A stretch of 41,957 nucleotides of DNA from Chitinophagaceae bacterium (GTDB lineage: Bacteria > Bacteroidota > Bacteroidia > Chitinophagales > Chitinophagaceae): contig CANGIY010000028.1 of assembly GCA_947454235.1 (NCBI GenBank), positions 1 to 41,957 on the forward strand, in the 5' to 3' direction. This document shows positions 28,498-33,508 of the stretch, in pieces; positions within the stretch are counted from its first letter, which is position 1; the number at the start of each line of letters is the position of its first letter. A program made the translations under genes and the position numbers. The notes below the pieces were generated by a model that was given only the letters and a program-made list of their open reading frames with translations, did not search any database and was not told the DNA's origin.

Positions 28498-28528
28498 TTT
28501 TGTTTTTTTGTTTGGTTTACTAGTTTTG
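28498..28528 (+). promoter_or_regulatory. Promoter of the lipase/MNIO operon
   Basis: A TTTTG ending at 28502 and, 18 bases on, TAGTTTTG (28521-28528), an exact TAnnTTTG. It is in the 210-base gap between divergent folA and the lipase gene, about 70 bases before the ATG. The leader includes GGGC/GCCC, a small stem, near the start codon. Confidence 0.6.
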
Positions 28529-28600: not shown

Positions 28601-29623
28601 ATGACAACACCACAGTATTCTGCCGACCAAATTACTTTCTGTCATGCTGCTCTTTCAAATCTTTCGAGCATGCAAAACGGAACACCACAACAAATCCAGC
28701 AGATCGTAAAAAATCAACTTAACTCTGTCTACACAAATACAAACATTCAATTGTTGATTGGCAACTGGAAAGTTGTTTGGGGACCGAGCGTATTGACTTA
28801 CAACGGCAAAGACCTCAACGACATGTATATTGCTTATTGCGCTGATACCAATCAATATGTTGTAGCAATTTCTGGCACCAACTCCAAATCAGCAGTTGAC
28901 TGGATTACCGAAGATTTTGAAGTGCTTTCAACAGTAACATGGCCTTATTTGCCTGAGCACTCAATCATCAATCCGTGCATCAGCAAAGCAACGTCTAATG
29001 GGCTGAATGCACTTATTAACTTGAAAGACAGTGAAACAGGTGACACAGCAGCAACATACCTTGGTAAAAATAAAGCAACCAATATTATAGTCTCAGGCCA
29101 TAGCTTGGGGGGTGCGCTTTCACCAACCTACGCATTGTATCTCGCCGATACTCTGAGCCAATGGTCTCAAGAAGAAAATGTACAAATCTCTGTTATGGCA
29201 CTAGCAGGCGCAACCCCGGGCGATGCCGCGTTTTCTAATTATTATACGAGTCGTCTTGGCGCAACAACAAACAGAGTTTGGAACCAATTTGATGTCGTAC
29301 CACACGGCTTTGAAGCAGACATGCTGAAAAAAGTAAAATCAATTTACGACGGAACATTCCATACTCCTGGCTACATTTCTCTGGTTATTGATGGGCTTGT
29401 TCTTGCTACTGCCAATAAACACTACACACAATTAATGCCTGAAACTCCAGGCTTCTCAATTCCAATTTGGCAAAAAACATCAGGCTTCCTCGATGCTGCT
29501 TTGTGCAATCACATTTGTTGCTATGCAATGCATTTCAATGTTGGCGACTTCCAGCAACTCGTTTCAACTACGTTGGGGTTAAGCAAGCCTTTCTTTAGCG
29601 ATGGCGACCCTTTATACATGTAA
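28601..29623 (+). CDS. Class 3 lipase (alpha/beta hydrolase)
   Basis: A 340-residue protein without a signal peptide or membrane helix. The nucleophile elbow SGHSLGGAL (Ser about 168) and the segment VVAISGTNS followed by VDWITEDF (89-106, oxyanion-hole region) are those of fungal-type class 3 lipases. The catalytic Asp is probably in WNQFDVVPHGF (about 231), and the His near 304-311 (LCNHICCYAMHF). It should hydrolyse an acyl ester. Start ATG 28601 is preferred to TTG 28577. It is the first gene of a co-directional set with a ferritin-like protein, a Cys-rich protein and MNIO enzymes; its link to them is by position only. Confidence 0.85.
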   Translation: MTTPQYSADQITFCHAALSNLSSMQNGTPQQIQQIVKNQLNSVYTNTNIQLLIGNWKVVWGPSVLTYNGKDLNDMYIAYCADTNQYVVAISGTNSKSAVDWITEDFEVLSTVTWPYLPEHSIINPCISKATSNGLNALINLKDSETGDTAATYLGKNKATNIIVSGHSLGGALSPTYALYLADTLSQWSQEENVQISVMALAGATPGDAAFSNYYTSRLGATTNRVWNQFDVVPHGFEADMLKKVKSIYDGTFHTPGYISLVIDGLVLATANKHYTQLMPETPGFSIPIWQKTSGFLDAALCNHICCYAMHFNVGDFQQLVSTTLGLSKPFFSDGDPLYM

Positions 29624-29657
29624 TAAAATTTCACTCCTCAATCATAAAATCAAAATC

Positions 29658-31022
29658 ATGGTCAATCACAAATTATTTAGAAAAGATACCGCTAAAGATG
29701 CCTCAATTGGCGAATATCTGCAGCAGGCTATCGACATCGAGATCTCAACCATCCCGACGTACCTCTACACGTATTATTCAATCAACAGGACGCCTACTCA
29801 GGAGCTGTTGTGTGCGCAAATCATCAACCAGTTGATGAGCAACAACGAAAAACAATTGATCAATGGAACACCTGTTTTAACACTTCAGGAAGCCACTAAA
29901 AAAGCGCAGGATCTTTCAGCACAAATTATGGTGCTTGCAAATAAAGCCGGTGCCATGATTATGAGCGTAGCAATTGAAGAAATGTTGCACGTGTCCCTTT
30001 CCAGCAATATCATGCAGGCATTAGTGGGCAACCCAATTCTAAATGGCCGCACACCTATGGTTTGGCCTGCTGAATTACCGGGGCATGAACCAAAACTAAT
30101 GCTCAACAAAACAAAATTATCTCCCGACCAGTTAGAAGCTTTCATTGCTGTAGAAAGTCCGAAACCACTTGGTAAAAAGAACATCAAAACTGCAATTCCT
30201 TACTATACCATTGGTGAATTCTACCATGAGATTTTGAGGATTCTTGAAAAAGACTTTAAAAAAGACAGCGACTATAACACAACCCGCCCTCAATTGGTAC
30301 CCGGTAAAGGTTACTATTCAGCAAATACAATTGATACCGTTTACTATAATCGTGAACACAATCCATCAGTAGTTTCAAGAGAAGACAGCGGTGATATTAT
30401 TCATGTTACAAACTTTGATTCTGCAAAAAAAGCCATCCAGGAGATTTGCGAACAAGGTGAAGGAAATGAAGCTGACCAACACAAAACCGACGATAAAAGC
30501 AGGCAAGAACTTTCGCACTGGGAAAAATTCAAGTTATTGCATAAGTCACTCACCGAACACATTACTATATTTGAAAATGAAGGACTTGACTTATTGAGCT
30601 ACTTCGTATTGAATGTACCTACCAACCCTAAAACATCAGAATATCCTGCTCATATTCAGGCGGTATCAAACCTGGTAAATGGCGTTTATACGTACATCTT
30701 CGTCATGATCGAAGCGTGTTACGCACCGGCAGTACAAAACACTCAGTACGAAATCTTCATGATGGGTATCCACAAATCAATGATTTTCATCCTCAATTCA
30801 CTTTGTGGAGATATCAATGGTATGACCTACACCGATGCAAACGGAGACCAAAAGATTGCTGCTGCCACATTTGAAACATATCCGTTCGGCGGACCAAGCA
30901 GTCCTAAATCACAATTGATTGCATTATACAATACTGCAGTAGCAGTGTATCCTAAAATCAGCTACCTGGGTGGCCGTATCAATGATTTGCCTAGCGTTCC
31001 ATTAAATAACTACAACAAATAA
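29658..31022 (+). CDS. VioB-like ferritin-fold protein
   Basis: A 454-residue protein. The N-terminal 170 residues match the ferritin-like domain of iminophenyl-pyruvate dimer synthase (VioB, RebD C-terminal relatives): YLQQAIDIEISTIPTYLY with Glu28, and SVAIEEMLHVSLSSN with Glu107/108 and His111 as iron ligands. The rest (to GGRINDLPSVP) is helical and typical of the family. Members are inferred to use a diiron or heme-free iron site for oxidative coupling, but the substrate here is unknown. ATG 29658 is chosen over an upstream codon in the same frame at 29601, which would overlap the lipase. It lies 13 bases before the Cys-rich gene. Confidence 0.82.
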   Translation: MVNHKLFRKDTAKDASIGEYLQQAIDIEISTIPTYLYTYYSINRTPTQELLCAQIINQLMSNNEKQLINGTPVLTLQEATKKAQDLSAQIMVLANKAGAMIMSVAIEEMLHVSLSSNIMQALVGNPILNGRTPMVWPAELPGHEPKLMLNKTKLSPDQLEAFIAVESPKPLGKKNIKTAIPYYTIGEFYHEILRILEKDFKKDSDYNTTRPQLVPGKGYYSANTIDTVYYNREHNPSVVSREDSGDIIHVTNFDSAKKAIQEICEQGEGNEADQHKTDDKSRQELSHWEKFKLLHKSLTEHITIFENEGLDLLSYFVLNVPTNPKTSEYPAHIQAVSNLVNGVYTYIFVMIEACYAPAVQNTQYEIFMMGIHKSMIFILNSLCGDINGMTYTDANGDQKIAAATFETYPFGGPSSPKSQLIALYNTAVAVYPKISYLGGRINDLPSVPLNNYNK

Positions 31023-31035
31023 AAAAAACTATATC

Positions 31036-31716
31036 ATGGCTTACATACAGTTATCTCCAAACTCAAACGGATGTAGCGGACCATCGGCTCCAATTCCTTC
31101 AAAAACAAACAACAGCACCAGCGGATGCTGTAACAACATAATCATCCCGATTGAACTTCATGCCTGCATGGGTTTAAATGCTTGTAAAGGGCACGATAAA
31201 AACGGTACCAATATTTGTGCAGGTATGGGTGTTTGTGCAACAGCACAAACGCACGTGTGCCATACGCTCAACAATTGTCGCAACCAAGGCGGTTGCGGAT
31301 TATATGGCGATGCCGAAGAGCAAATGAACCCGGGCAACAACCGTTGCGCCAGCCTCGGTAGTTGTGCAGTGCCTATTCAGGCTGAACGCTTCAGCACCAT
31401 GGGTCCTAACGCAGGAAAAAGCGTATGGCTGAGAGCGCGCGCCATTTTCGAAGAAAGGATGAAACAAGCCGACCGTAGCTTTGGCGCGTCTCCAATGGCA
31501 GGCGGCCCATCTCAGGCATGGCTAACAAGCCAGCTAGGCCAATACGACTCATGCGGTAATGCCGGTAACAAGTACTGCTCGTTCGGCTTCAACGACCCGA
31601 ATGAAAATGGCAAAAAGCTGCGCGAAGGCAAGGACATTCTTGTTGATGAGAAGTACAGCGTTACTCCTGCTAAAGTGCAGCACACATCTAACAAGAAAAG
31701 AACAACTAAAAAGTAA
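31036..31716 (+). CDS. Cysteine-rich protein, probable MNIO substrate (RiPP precursor-like)
   Basis: A 226-residue protein with 14 cysteines and no signal peptide. Nine are spaced exactly C-x5-C: 44/50, 61/67, 75/81/87 and 104/110, with inserts such as CMGLNAC, CAGMGVC, CRNQGGC and CASLGSC; a Gly or Asn usually precedes the last residue before the second Cys. Cys13, 31/32, 173 and 181 stand apart. A segment at about 128-150 (WLRARAIFEERMKQADRSFG) looks helical; the C-terminus is Lys/Arg-rich (NKKRTTKK). The next genes encode an MNIO enzyme and its DUF2063 partner, which in other systems modify cysteines of precursor proteins such as bufferins, so this is the likely substrate. That role is inferred from position and cysteine content. 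Confidence 0.78.
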   Translation: MAYIQLSPNSNGCSGPSAPIPSKTNNSTSGCCNNIIIPIELHACMGLNACKGHDKNGTNICAGMGVCATAQTHVCHTLNNCRNQGGCGLYGDAEEQMNPGNNRCASLGSCAVPIQAERFSTMGPNAGKSVWLRARAIFEERMKQADRSFGASPMAGGPSQAWLTSQLGQYDSCGNAGNKYCSFGFNDPNENGKKLREGKDILVDEKYSVTPAKVQHTSNKKRTTKK

Positions 31717-31761
31717 TAACTTTGAGAAGGAAGCGGGAGCAATTCCGCTTCCATTTTTTAT

Positions 31762-32697
31762 ATGCCGGTAACTCATTATTCAAACTCAGTTCAGAATCAC
31801 CCTAACCCCGGGCTGGGGCTAGGACTCAGAAGCCAACACTTTAACCACATACTGGAAACGAATCCTGCAGTGGATTGGTTTGAAATCATCTCTGAGAATT
31901 TTATGGATTCGGGTGGGCGCCCGAGGCATGTGTTGCGTCAACTGTTGGATAAGTACCCAATAGTCATGCACGGCGTATCAATGTCAATTGGCAGTACCGA
32001 CCCATTGAATATGGATTACCTCGCGAAACTCAAAGCACTCGCTGAGGAAGCAAAACCTTTGTGGGTGAGTGATCACCTTTGCTGGACAGGTGTCAACCGC
32101 CTCAATACGCACGACCTGCTACCAGTAATTCTCAATGAAGAATCATTGACGCACATAGTTGCTCGTATTCATGCTGTACAAGAGTTTTTACAACGACCAC
32201 TTATTATAGAAAACCCTAGTTCTTACCTCACTTTCAAGCAGTCAACCATTCCCGAAAACGAGTTTTTAACTGAATTAGTGAAAAGAACGGGCTGTGGTTT
32301 GTTGCTCGATGTCAACAATGTTTATGTCTCGTCGTTCAATAACGAATTTGACCCTGAGCAGTACATCAAAAATCTGCCCCACGAAAACATCGTACAAATG
32401 CATCTCGCAGGACACCAGAATATGGGTACTTATATCATTGACACCCACGACCGCGAAGTAGTGCCGGAAGTGTGGAAGCTGTTCCACCTCGCATGGCAAC
32501 TCACCGGGGGCTGCGCTTTATTGCTGGAATGGGACGGTAATATCCCCGATTTCGATGTTTGCCACCAGGAAGTACTCAAAGCACGCGATTATATGCACGA
32601 TTTTAAAGCCCGCGTCATCAACAACGATACTGGTATAGATACTGAAGCGGCCGTATCTAATCCGGTTCATTTTATGGTTCCAGAAGTAAGTTTATAG
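31762..32697 (+). CDS. MNIO (DUF692) multinuclear iron oxidative enzyme
   Basis: A 311-residue DUF692 protein, the MbnB/TglH/ChrH/BufB family. After GLGLGLRSQHFNHIL come the conserved ligand regions: WFEIISENFM (43-48), IVMHGVSMSIG (His70), WVSDHLCWTG (Asp104, His105), IIENPSSY (Glu150, Asn151), LLDVNNVYVS (Asp183, Asn186), QMHLAGH (His214, His218), IDTHDREV (Asp227, His229) and LLEWDGNIP (Glu256). Known members use two or three irons to oxidise cysteine of ribosomal peptides into oxazolone/thioamide, thiooxazole or related groups. Length and motif set are complete. The partner gene starts 1 base after its stop. Confidence 0.95.
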   Translation: MPVTHYSNSVQNHPNPGLGLGLRSQHFNHILETNPAVDWFEIISENFMDSGGRPRHVLRQLLDKYPIVMHGVSMSIGSTDPLNMDYLAKLKALAEEAKPLWVSDHLCWTGVNRLNTHDLLPVILNEESLTHIVARIHAVQEFLQRPLIIENPSSYLTFKQSTIPENEFLTELVKRTGCGLLLDVNNVYVSSFNNEFDPEQYIKNLPHENIVQMHLAGHQNMGTYIIDTHDREVVPEVWKLFHLAWQLTGGCALLLEWDGNIPDFDVCHQEVLKARDYMHDFKARVINNDTGIDTEAAVSNPVHFMVPEVSL

Positions 32698-32698
32698 C

Positions 32699-33508
32699 AT
32701 GGGGTTCAGTAATCAGGATATATTCAATTGGATGCAGAATGCAATTGTGCCCTCTGCCGCCACAACCGGCGCTACGAGTATAGATGCACTGTACGAAATT
32801 GTTAACGCCACTTCCAAACTCTCTCCCGAAAAACATCTTTCCATATATGCGGGTAGTTATATTGCCCGACTGAGGGAGTGTATGAAAAACCAATTCAGCG
32901 CACTGAACTACGCCCTTGGTGAAGATTTGTTCAGGGCATTTGCCGATGAATATCTGTATGTCTACCCCTCAGAAAGCTATACGCTGAACGATTTAGGACA
33001 ACACTTTCAGCGCTATCTCAAAGAAACACGCCCCGATACAAGTGACGATGAACTGAACGACTGGCCCGATTTCATCATCGAGTTGGCAGGTTTTGAGTAT
33101 CACCTTTCACAACTATTCGACCAGCATACTGATATTGAAGCCAATATTGCCCCAACTGATACACCTGATGCCGTACTTTCAGTACCGCCAGTATTTTCAA
33201 TAGTAGAAAGTACCTACCCCGTCAGCCGCTATTACCTCGATGTTGTAAGTAAAAATGAACCGGGAATACCACAAGCCCAAACATCGTACTGCGCCATCGT
33301 ACGCATTAGCTACCGCATAGGTATCTTCGACCTCAATGCCGCGCAATTTCACTTCCTGATGCTGTTCACACAATTGGGTGATATCGAACAAACTATACAG
33401 CAATTTGCCACACAATTCAATTTCCCAATAGAAGCCGTACTCGAGATTTGGGCTACATGGCGCACCTACTTCCTAAAATCCGGTATTTTGATTGAACGAA
33501 GGGGATAA
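32699..33508 (+). CDS. DUF2063 partner protein of the MNIO enzyme (HvfC/BufC-like)
   Basis: A 269-residue protein. The N-terminal DUF2063 (HvfC-type) part has FNWMQNAIV, YAGSYIARLRECMKNQF, YALGEDLFRAFADEYL and DLGQHFQRYL, in the order known from MNIO partner proteins that bind the leader of the precursor and deliver it to the MNIO enzyme. The C-terminal part (about 130-269) is a separate, mixed domain, ending with a helix pair rich in aromatic residues. It begins 1 base after the MNIO stop codon, so translation is probably coupled. It converges on batC, with no obvious terminator between. Confidence 0.93.
   Translation: MGFSNQDIFNWMQNAIVPSAATTGATSIDALYEIVNATSKLSPEKHLSIYAGSYIARLRECMKNQFSALNYALGEDLFRAFADEYLYVYPSESYTLNDLGQHFQRYLKETRPDTSDDELNDWPDFIIELAGFEYHLSQLFDQHTDIEANIAPTDTPDAVLSVPPVFSIVESTYPVSRYYLDVVSKNEPGIPQAQTSYCAIVRISYRIGIFDLNAAQFHFLMLFTQLGDIEQTIQQFATQFNFPIEAVLEIWATWRTYFLKSGILIERRG

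What the first reader, a model, noticed from the sequence alone, without database searches (positions are those of the whole stretch)
28601..33508. Five-gene MNIO (DUF692) operon with a cysteine-rich substrate candidate
The order is lipase, ferritin-fold protein, 226-residue Cys-rich protein, MNIO enzyme, DUF2063 partner, all on one strand, with gaps of 34, 13, 45 and 1 bases and one promoter candidate before the first gene. MNIO plus DUF2063 plus a Cys-rich protein is the core of known copper-binding or modified-peptide systems (methanobactin, bufferins, ChrA). Here the substrate is long, has no signal peptide and uses another cysteine pattern, and two unusual enzymes join it. I infer a post-translationally modified cytoplasmic metal-binding or redox-active protein.
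Basis: partly seen in the sequence, partly recalled or inferred. Interest (0 to 1): 0.86.

Follow-up and report, generated by a model that had tools for sequence, protein, structure and literature searches.

The report
Bufferin-like protein paired with ferritin-like enzyme
A bacterial gene set appears to chemically modify a cysteine-rich protein that seems to stay inside the cell and to work together with (and in some relatives is physically joined to) a ferritin-like partner, instead of being exported as a copper-binding peptide like its known relatives.

Summary
The genes are real and at the stated place. The conserved unit is four genes, not five: ferritin-like protein (PF12902), Cys-rich protein, MNIO enzyme, DUF2063 partner. 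I found this order in 12 other unfused loci (one cut by a contig end inside the MNIO). In 7 more loci the ferritin-like and Cys-rich parts are one polypeptide, followed by MNIO and DUF2063. No homologue of the lipase was found in those 19 loci, one of them from the same genus. The Cys-rich core (residues about 42-113) is a remote relative of the bufferin-2 precursor BufA2; the protein lacks a recognisable signal peptide and has a conserved C-terminal domain. The 19 linked MNIOs placed in a tree form one clade, sister to MNIOs of bufferin-2-type loci. A terminator-like hairpin lies between the Cys-rich and MNIO genes. Best reading: the MNIO/DUF2063 pair installs thiooxazole-type groups on a cytoplasmic bufferin-2-like domain that works with a ferritin-like dimetal protein. 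Modification, location, metal and reaction are inferred. The published 'adjamnio-I' precursor group may overlap this family; the papers that my searches listed do not link MNIOs to this ferritin-like partner. New variant of a known kind.

The parts
28499..28528 (+). candidate Bacteroidota-type promoter (TTTG-N18-TAnnTTTG), 72 bases before the lipase ATG
   Evidence: Pattern match: 3 in the window, 1.71 expected by chance; weak. Consensus recalled, not from a call.
28601..29623 (+). Lipase_3-family hydrolase (340 aa); local addition, not part of the conserved cassette
   Evidence: PF01764 2.7e-14; no tblastn match at E 0.01 in 19 other cassette loci; L002 holds only 288 bases upstream of its ferritin-like gene.
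29658..31022 (+). ferritin-like protein (PF12902; 454 aa from ATG 29658, or 473 aa from ATG 29601); E47, E127xxH130, E287 and H306 (numbered from 29601) kept in 24 of 24 aligned homologues
   Evidence: (3.6e-37); solved relative 3HL1.
31036..31716 (+). Cys-rich protein, 226 aa, 14 Cys, no recognisable signal peptide; presumed MNIO substrate
31159..31374 (+). bufferin-2-like Cys core (residues 42-113) of the Cys-rich protein
31387..31597 (+). C-terminal domain (about residues 118-187: W131, R135, FEE, CGxxG, CS), absent from the six BufA2-type precursors aligned
   Evidence: alignments A1 and A4
31729..31752 (+). intrinsic-terminator-like hairpin (10-pair stem, T-run) between Cys-rich and MNIO genes; possible attenuator
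   Evidence: site; -18.6 kcal/mol; 0 of 500 dinucleotide shuffles as low
31762..32697 (+). MNIO enzyme (311 aa), bufferin-maturase subfamily
   Evidence: PF05114 3.3e-107; NF050167 BufB 358.1 bits, cut-off 310; tree
32699..33508 (+). DUF2063-type MNIO partner (269 aa), with a weak HvfC match over residues 43-265
   Evidence: PF09836 53.4 bits, cut-off 27.2; NF050145 56.5 bits, below its cut-off 142

Best explanation
The conserved unit is a cytoplasmic, protein-sized branch of the bufferin-2 kind of MNIO system. The MNIO (31762-32697), guided by its DUF2063 partner, oxidises some cysteines of the bufferin-2-like core of the Cys-rich protein, most likely to 5-thiooxazoles (inferred from the subfamily). 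The product is not exported. It assembles with the ferritin-like protein, in some lineages as one polypeptide, into a two-part intracellular metalloprotein: a ferritin-type dimetal site next to a thiooxazole/thiolate metal or redox site. I think the complex most likely uses the modified domain to hold copper or pass electrons for oxidative chemistry at the ferritin-like site. Shown: gene order, homology, shared descent of the MNIOs, fusions, kept dimetal-type ligands, kept cysteines. Inferred: modification, cytoplasmic location, complex in the unfused case, metal, reaction.
For: Order ferritin-like/Cys-rich/MNIO in 13 unfused loci including the window, DUF2063 next in the 12 complete ones. Ferritin-like and Cys-rich in one ORF followed by MNIO and DUF2063 in 7 more. 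Of 17 ferritin-like places found in 395 genomes (at most 4 first-look candidates scored per genome), 11 have Cys-rich plus MNIO plus DUF2063. The 19 linked MNIOs form one clade (95/94), sister to 8 MNIOs of bufferin-2-type loci (85/83); fused L054 sits beside unfused L022 (99/93), so fusion or fission happened more than once. NCBI's BufA2 model matches 15 of 17 members of A5 at E 0.01 or better, that is 12 of 14 ferritin-linked ones; profile-profile E 4.2e-17; 7 bufferin-2-like precursors score 26.8-51.3 bits against the Cys-rich profile, the best of 300 Cys-preserving shuffles each 2.8-13.9. MNIO passes the BufB cut-off. Distances correlate: Cys/ferritin 0.76, ferritin/MNIO 0.82, Cys/MNIO 0.51 over 11 loci. 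Thiooxazole chemistry of MNIO-DUF2063 pairs: PMC12668002, section 5 parts 1-2.
Against: The window protein itself fails the BufA2 model (E 0.13; not among matches at 0.01). No modification, metal or activity was measured. The Cys core is predicted with low confidence (10-residue means 32-46 from residue 41 to 110; mostly below 50 in the fusion), so no docking onto the ferritin-like domain could be seen. The second ExxH glutamate (E303) is missing in 4 of 7 fusions. Fusion of a tailoring enzyme with its own substrate is known in borosins (recalled), so fusion does not prove a working complex. Absence of a signal peptide rests on hydrophobicity only: 0.36-1.78 in 11 Cys-rich proteins (window 1.78, the highest) against 1.98-2.50 in 7 bufferin-2 types, and the N-termini of the 7 fusions reach 2.03. 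Metal-transport or metal-resistance genes lie near some cassettes (L011, L023, L014, L089), which fits the metal-store rival as well.
Confidence: 0.52

Rival explanations
1. The ferritin-like protein is a second tailoring enzyme: MNIO and ferritin-like protein both modify the Cys-rich precursor of an unusual RiPP, with the fused form acting like a self-modifying borosin (borosins recalled).
For: Same operon and fusion; ferritin-type ligands kept; other diiron oxygenases tailor peptides (recalled).
Against: In the window, L088 and L089 a terminator-like hairpin groups the ferritin-like gene with the Cys-rich gene rather than with the MNIO/DUF2063 pair; the Cys-rich protein has a conserved C-terminal domain. 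I recognised no protease gene next to the cassettes, but neighbours were only looked at by eye and in part scanned.
Confidence: 0.2
2. A cytosolic metal store or detoxifier: a bufferin that is not exported buffers copper or another metal, and the ferritin-like protein oxidises or stores metal.
For: Relation to bufferin-2 and BufB; known copper binding of thiooxazole peptides (PMC12668002); ferritin-like fold; an Nramp metal transporter beside or near the cassette in L011 and L023 (one genus), an RND-type efflux pump in L014, an ArsR-family regulator and an arsenate-reductase-like gene beside L089.
Against: No one metal gene recurs across the genera; L012, L013 and L015 have amine-oxidase-like and thiamine-diphosphate enzymes instead. 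Neighbours were not scanned systematically.
Confidence: 0.24
3. The Cys-rich protein is not modified; it is a plain Zn, Fe-S or disulfide protein, and the MNIO has another substrate.
For: Nothing was measured; the core has no EGKCG repeats and few Lys-Cys steps (sequence).
Against: Core homology to MNIO substrates and constant place directly before the MNIO gene in 20 of 20 loci; the only MNIO found in the genome.
Confidence: 0.04

Closest known systems
Bufferin-2 (BufA2/BufB/BufC) systems
   Same: MNIO of the BufB model (358.1 bits, cut-off 310), DUF2063 partner, order precursor-MNIO-partner, homologous Cys core
   Different: Window precursor fails the BufA2 model; no recognisable signal peptide; extra C-terminal domain; ferritin-like neighbour or fusion in every locus of the long family found here
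Bufferin fusion proteins reported in PMC12452194 (Buf1 with cytochrome c / FGE-sulfatase, MerC with Buf1 or Buf2; passages)
   Same: Bufferin domain joined to another functional domain
   Different: Those named there do not include a ferritin-like domain; the MerC ones are membrane proteins with the bufferin part in the periplasm
Captophorins (thiooxazole metallophores: fontiphorin, oxazolin, gonophorin)
   Same: MNIO plus DUF2063-type partner acting on a Cys-rich substrate (PMC12668002)
   Different: No EGKCG repeats; HvfB model missed (247.8 of 360 bits); no signal-peptide precursor
adjamnio-I putative precursors (PMC12452194, Table 2)
   Same: No signal peptide; 122-293 aa and 8-21 Cys cover this protein (226 aa, 14 Cys); gene directly before the MNIO
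   Different: Major adjamnio-I partner is PME-type 2 (no DUF2063 signature); here 14 of 14 partners scanned pass the DUF2063 cut-off; 'ferritin' does not occur in that main text. Its alignment is in a supplement that I could not read, so overlap is open
PF12902 ferritin-like proteins (CC_0557, 3HL1; VioB)
   Same: Fold and kept ligands
   Different: VioB model far below cut-off (27.3 of 1250 bits); 6 other PF12902 places, one in the window's own genome, lack Cys-rich and MNIO neighbours

Membership tests
Bufferin-2 | Precursor passes BufA2 model NF050166 (60 bits) | tested here: not met
   12.5 bits, E 0.13; relatives L010 and L011 about 20 bits, E 7e-4; 15 of 17 members of A5 at E 0.01 or better, three of them bufferin-2 types
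Bufferin-2 | Sec signal peptide | tested here: not met
   Hydrophobicity only: highest 10-residue mean 0.36-1.78 in 11 Cys-rich proteins (window 1.78), 1.98-2.50 in 7 bufferin-2 types; no signal-peptide predictor available
Bufferin-2 | MNIO of the BufB subfamily | tested here: met
   NF050167 358.1 bits, cut-off 310; clade sister to MNIOs of bufferin-2-type loci
Bufferin-2 | DUF2063 partner encoded after the MNIO | tested here: met
   PF09836 53.4 bits, cut-off 27.2
Captophorins | Cys converted to 5-thiooxazole (loss of 4 Da each), copper bound | not testable with these tools
   Needs mass spectrometry, UV and NMR
adjamnio-I | Signal-peptide-less, 122-293 aa, 8-21 Cys, before the MNIO | tested here: met
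   226 aa, 14 Cys; hydrophobicity; Table 2 read
adjamnio-I | PME-type 2 partner without DUF2063 signature (the major organisation) | tested here: not met
   14 of 14 partners scanned pass PF09836; 5 further complete partners (L014, L054, L093, L096, L097) not scanned
adjamnio-I | Sequence similarity to the published alignment (Fig. S3) | not testable with these tools
PF12902 ferritin-like | Pfam profile over cut-off | tested here: met
   128.8 bits, cut-off 22.3
PF12902 ferritin-like | Dimetal-type ligands E, ExxH, E, H | tested here: met
   E47, E127, H130, E287, H306 in 24 of 24 aligned sequences; E303 missing in 4 of 7 fusions and 1 of 5 unlinked proteins. Their role as ligands is inferred from the ferritin pattern (recalled); metal not tested
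VioB | TIGR04492 over cut-off 1250 | tested here: not met
   27.3 bits
Methanobactin | MbnB model over cut-off 325 | tested here: not met
   54.7 bits
Chryseobasin/chryseobactin (ChrH) | ChrH model over cut-off 600 | tested here: not met
   45.9 bits

The most novel reading that the evidence does not exclude
MNIO chemistry here builds a protein-bound thiooxazole cofactor for an enzyme: the modified bufferin-like domain is the working metal or electron-transfer subunit of a ferritin-like oxidase (in some hosts in a pathway with an amine-oxidase-like flavoprotein and a thiamine-diphosphate enzyme). It would be the first MNIO product known to me that is an enzyme part and not a metallophore or natural product.
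Probability: 0.32. Interest if true: 0.87.

Novelty: new variant of a known kind. Interest (0 to 1): 0.63.

Why it matters
MNIO/DUF2063 systems are known as makers of exported copper-binding peptides and of natural products. A branch whose substrate is a protein that seems to stay inside the cell, and is sometimes part of the same chain as a ferritin-like domain, suggests that this chemistry may also serve to equip enzymes or intracellular metal proteins. It would be an exception to the reported link between DUF2063-type partners and signal-peptide precursors (PMC12452194, passages of sections 19 and 21). The fused proteins give a simple test object: one protein, two maturases.

Tried and rejected
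Lipase as a core member: rejected; no tblastn match at E 0.01 in 19 other cassette loci. L002 has only 288 bases upstream, and L024 and L054 about 1.3 and 2 kb, so a lipase further away would be missed there.

Wholly new Cys pattern: rejected by profile comparison and shuffles.

Pfam shows Nramp in L011 and L023, an AcrB-type pump in L014, ArsR and a low-molecular-weight-phosphatase-type protein in L089, and a DsbD-type membrane protein in L010. I therefore raised the metal-store rival from 0.20 to 0.24 and lowered the main reading from 0.55 to 0.52, the tailoring rival from 0.22 to 0.20, the unmodified rival from 0.05 to 0.04, the novel case from 0.33 to 0.32 and the interest from 0.64 to 0.63.

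Anti-phage defence: no PADLOC match at E 0.01 for the five proteins. Plasmid carriage of the Cys-rich protein: no tblastn match at E 1e-3 in 72,556 plasmid records.

Structure of the Cys-rich protein: predicted, but core confidence too low to interpret, so no fold search was made with it. Fusion model: only the ferritin-like part is confident and matches 3HL1. No PDB sequence match for the Cys-rich profile or the DUF2063 protein.

Promoter and terminator scans: 11 sigma-70-like sites against 10.5 expected, 5 terminator-like against 5.3 expected; only the 31729 hairpin was followed up, for its place and length. A hairpin followed by a T-run in the Cys-rich/MNIO gap is seen in 3 of the 6 gaps folded (window, L088, L089); L010 has a hairpin without T-run; L011 and L023 have none with a T-run; the 12-base gap of L002 was too short to fold. 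A stricter scan flagged only the window and L088 gaps, because the L089 loop is longer than its limit; five other unfused cassettes have a gap of 2 bases or an overlap there.

One search was wasted: the term also matched 'buffering'.
Full report
Observation. The ferritin-like gene most likely starts at ATG 29658: relatives align from there. The Cys-rich protein has 226 residues and 14 Cys, no Pfam family and only a weak BufA2 match (E 0.13). The MNIO passes NCBI's bufferin-maturase model and is the only MNIO found in the genome.

Conservation. A protein search of 395 Bacteroidota genomes gave 7 with the Cys-rich protein, the window's own included; it missed the fused forms of G363 and G379 in the same sample, found later. 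A profile search of the window's family gave 2 of 98 and of its genus 2 of 11, the own genome counted in both; of another family 3 of 151, one of them a fused form at E 8e-4. It is thus patchy. One contig of a Pyrinomonadaceae MAG also carries it; misbinning is possible. In the phylum of that MAG 28 of 297 genomes match the profile, but only 2 (G622, G868) belong to the long family (at most 10 candidates scored per genome). The unfused loci are the window, L002, L010-L015, L022, L023, L088, L089 and L131: 13 in all, each with ferritin-like, Cys-rich, MNIO in this order, and DUF2063 next in the 12 that are complete; L131 ends inside the MNIO. L013, L014 and L015 are of one genus. No lipase homologue was found in the other 19 cassette loci (limits under Tried and rejected). 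In the same-genus locus L131 the gene before the ferritin-like gene lies on the other strand and is an S4-domain protein.

Fusions. In 7 further loci (L024, L054, L091, L093, L094, L096, L097) ferritin-like and Cys-rich parts are in one reading frame, followed by MNIO and DUF2063 (for L054 the MNIO was placed by tblastn). L096 and L097 belong to one genus. In L024, L093, L096 and L097 the Cys-rich part is more diverged.

How strict is the link? A ferritin-like profile over 395 genomes of the class gave 14 genomes and 17 places; at most 4 first-look candidates per genome were scored, so this is a lower bound. Of these 17, 6 are unfused cassettes, 5 are fused cassettes, and 6 have neither Cys-rich nor MNIO neighbours; those 6 are weaker-scoring PF12902 proteins, one of them in the window's own genome. 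An MNIO search of 395 Bacteroidota genomes gave 25 genomes and 26 genes over the cut-off; 19 genes score above 300 bits. Of these 19, 9 are ferritin/Cys-rich cassettes (7 unfused, 2 fused), 3 (L101, L102, L109) fall in the bufferin-2 branch, of which only L109 has a precursor that matches the Cys-rich profile (7.3e-9), and 7 form a distant branch that I call HvfB-like, four of them after precursors with KCG repeats.

Descent. In a 35-row MNIO tree the 19 cassette MNIOs (12 unfused, 7 fused; L131 not included) form one group (95/94) next to the 8 MNIOs of bufferin-2-type loci (85/83), far from the 7 HvfB-like ones. Fused L054 pairs with unfused L022 (99/93), so joining or splitting happened at least twice. 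The root is a midpoint, and the program warned of long branches (L063, L117 and the HvfB-like group). Pairwise distances of Cys-rich, ferritin-like and MNIO proteins correlate over 11 loci (Cys/ferritin 0.76, Cys/MNIO 0.51, ferritin/MNIO 0.82; Mantel p 0.0001 to 0.0007); this fits genes that travel together, but plain common descent would give it too.

The Cys-rich protein. Eight core cysteines (44, 50, 67, 75, 81, 87, 104, 110) are invariant in 17 aligned proteins, 14 ferritin-linked and 3 bufferin-2 types; in a set with diverged L024 and more bufferin-2 types only six are (44, 67, 75, 81, 104, 110). Eleven are invariant in the first 8 unfused members. Profile-profile comparison with six bufferin-2-type precursors gives E 4.2e-17. 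Those precursors were found with the Cys-rich profile itself, so I added controls: these six and that of L109 score 26.8 to 51.3 bits, the best of 300 shuffles with cysteines in place 2.8 to 13.9 bits, and NCBI's own BufA2 model, built elsewhere, matches 15 of 17 members of the set at E 0.01 or better, though not the window protein. Two of the five precursors scanned pass the BufA2 cut-off. Besides L054, ten weaker-hit regions were fetched; six of them (L055, L056, L057, L058, L062, L064) have the MNIO directly after the precursor, L059 ends shortly after it, and L060, L061 and L063 do not show this order. The ferritin-linked proteins add a C-terminal domain and lack the more hydrophobic N-terminus of the bufferin-2 types, by a narrow margin for the window protein.

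The ferritin-like protein. E47, E127, H130, E287 and H306 are present in all 24 aligned PF12902 proteins (12 unfused, 7 fused, 5 unlinked); E303 is absent in 4 of 7 fusions and in one unlinked protein. The only solved relative by sequence at E 0.1 is 3HL1, E 1.5e-12, which is also the only match of the fusion model with E below 0.001 (1.4e-5 and 3.2e-4 for its two chains).

Expression. Between the Cys-rich and MNIO genes lies a 10-pair hairpin with a T-run; it folds at -18.6 kcal/mol, lower than 500 of 500 shuffles. The region as a whole has no excess of terminator-like sites. If it works, ferritin-like and Cys-rich proteins would be made in excess over the modifying pair, as expected for product and catalyst. 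Similar sites occur in L088 and L089, not in the other gaps.

Neighbours (looked at by eye, partly scanned). L012, L013 and L015 carry a thiamine-diphosphate enzyme and an amine-oxidase-like flavoprotein directly before the ferritin-like gene (Pfam for L012 and for the L013 thiamine enzyme; the L013 flavoprotein has no Pfam hit but is related to that of L012); the thiamine-diphosphate enzymes of L012 and L013 are 48% identical. L014, of the same genus as L013, lacks them and has an RND-type efflux pump nearby; L011 and L023 (one genus) have an Nramp metal transporter on the DUF2063 side; L089 has an ArsR-family regulator. The first set resembles the pairing of VioA and VioB in violacein synthesis (recalled) and is why I lean to an enzyme; the second fits a metal role.

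Literature. PMC12452194 (abstract, sections 13, 17, 18 and passages) describes bufferins, DUF2063 partners, bufferin fusions with cytochrome c, FGE-sulfatase and MerC domains, and signal-peptide-less 'adjamnio-I' proteins, some of which may belong here; its main text does not contain the word ferritin. PMC12668002 (abstract, section 5 parts 1 and 2 of 3, passages) reports 5-thiooxazoles and copper binding for MNIO/DUF2063 products. PMC4417212 (passages) notes PF12902 genes beside lodA-like genes in fungi. PMC8692599, PMC8224329 and PMC7907618: passages only. Searches that combined MNIO, DUF692, DUF2063 or bufferin terms with ferritin terms listed no paper that links the two systems; PMC8224329 and PMC7907618 hold both kinds of word in unrelated places. 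This covers the open library only, and the lists showed 12 of 14, 7 of 9 and 16 of 20 papers, copies being merged.

Verdict. A real, conserved, patchily spread cassette; a new variant of bufferin-2-type MNIO systems, with a ferritin-like partner that is sometimes fused. The chemistry and function are inferred.

Noticed in passing
L012:2803-6594, L013:10383-15658, L015:1188-6321: Amine-oxidase-like flavoprotein and thiamine-diphosphate enzyme (plus, in L013 and L015, a protein with a sub-threshold likeness to THAP4 heme-binding domains, tested in L013 only) directly upstream of the cassette; a similar protein lies beside the L010 cassette.
   Followed up: partly
L100:3439-6917 (own genome, contig C1), also L098 and L090: Other PF12902 ferritin-like genes without MNIO or Cys-rich neighbours; in L100 directly after a GMC oxidoreductase (Pfam), in L098 and L090 after similar-looking genes. 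A different ferritin-like system.
   Followed up: partly
L063:3049-7429: MNIO/DUF2063 pair directly after an electron-transfer flavoprotein alpha subunit and an ETF-quinone oxidoreductase (Pfam), with no evident Cys-rich precursor right before it.
   Followed up: partly
L114, L115, L116, L118: Precursors with repeated KCG motifs (several KCGEGKCG) before HvfB-like MNIOs in Bacteroidota genomes.
   Followed up: no
L011:11193-12488, L023:5398-6750, L014:415-4755, L089:8543-9914: Metal-related neighbours of some cassettes: Nramp transporter (L011, L023), RND-type pump with outer-membrane part (L014), ArsR-family regulator and arsenate-reductase-like protein (L089).
   Followed up: partly
L002 (JALHNX010000173.1): Cassette on a 12-kb contig of a Pyrinomonadaceae MAG whose MNIO groups with Bacteroidota ones: gene transfer or misbinning.
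   Followed up: no
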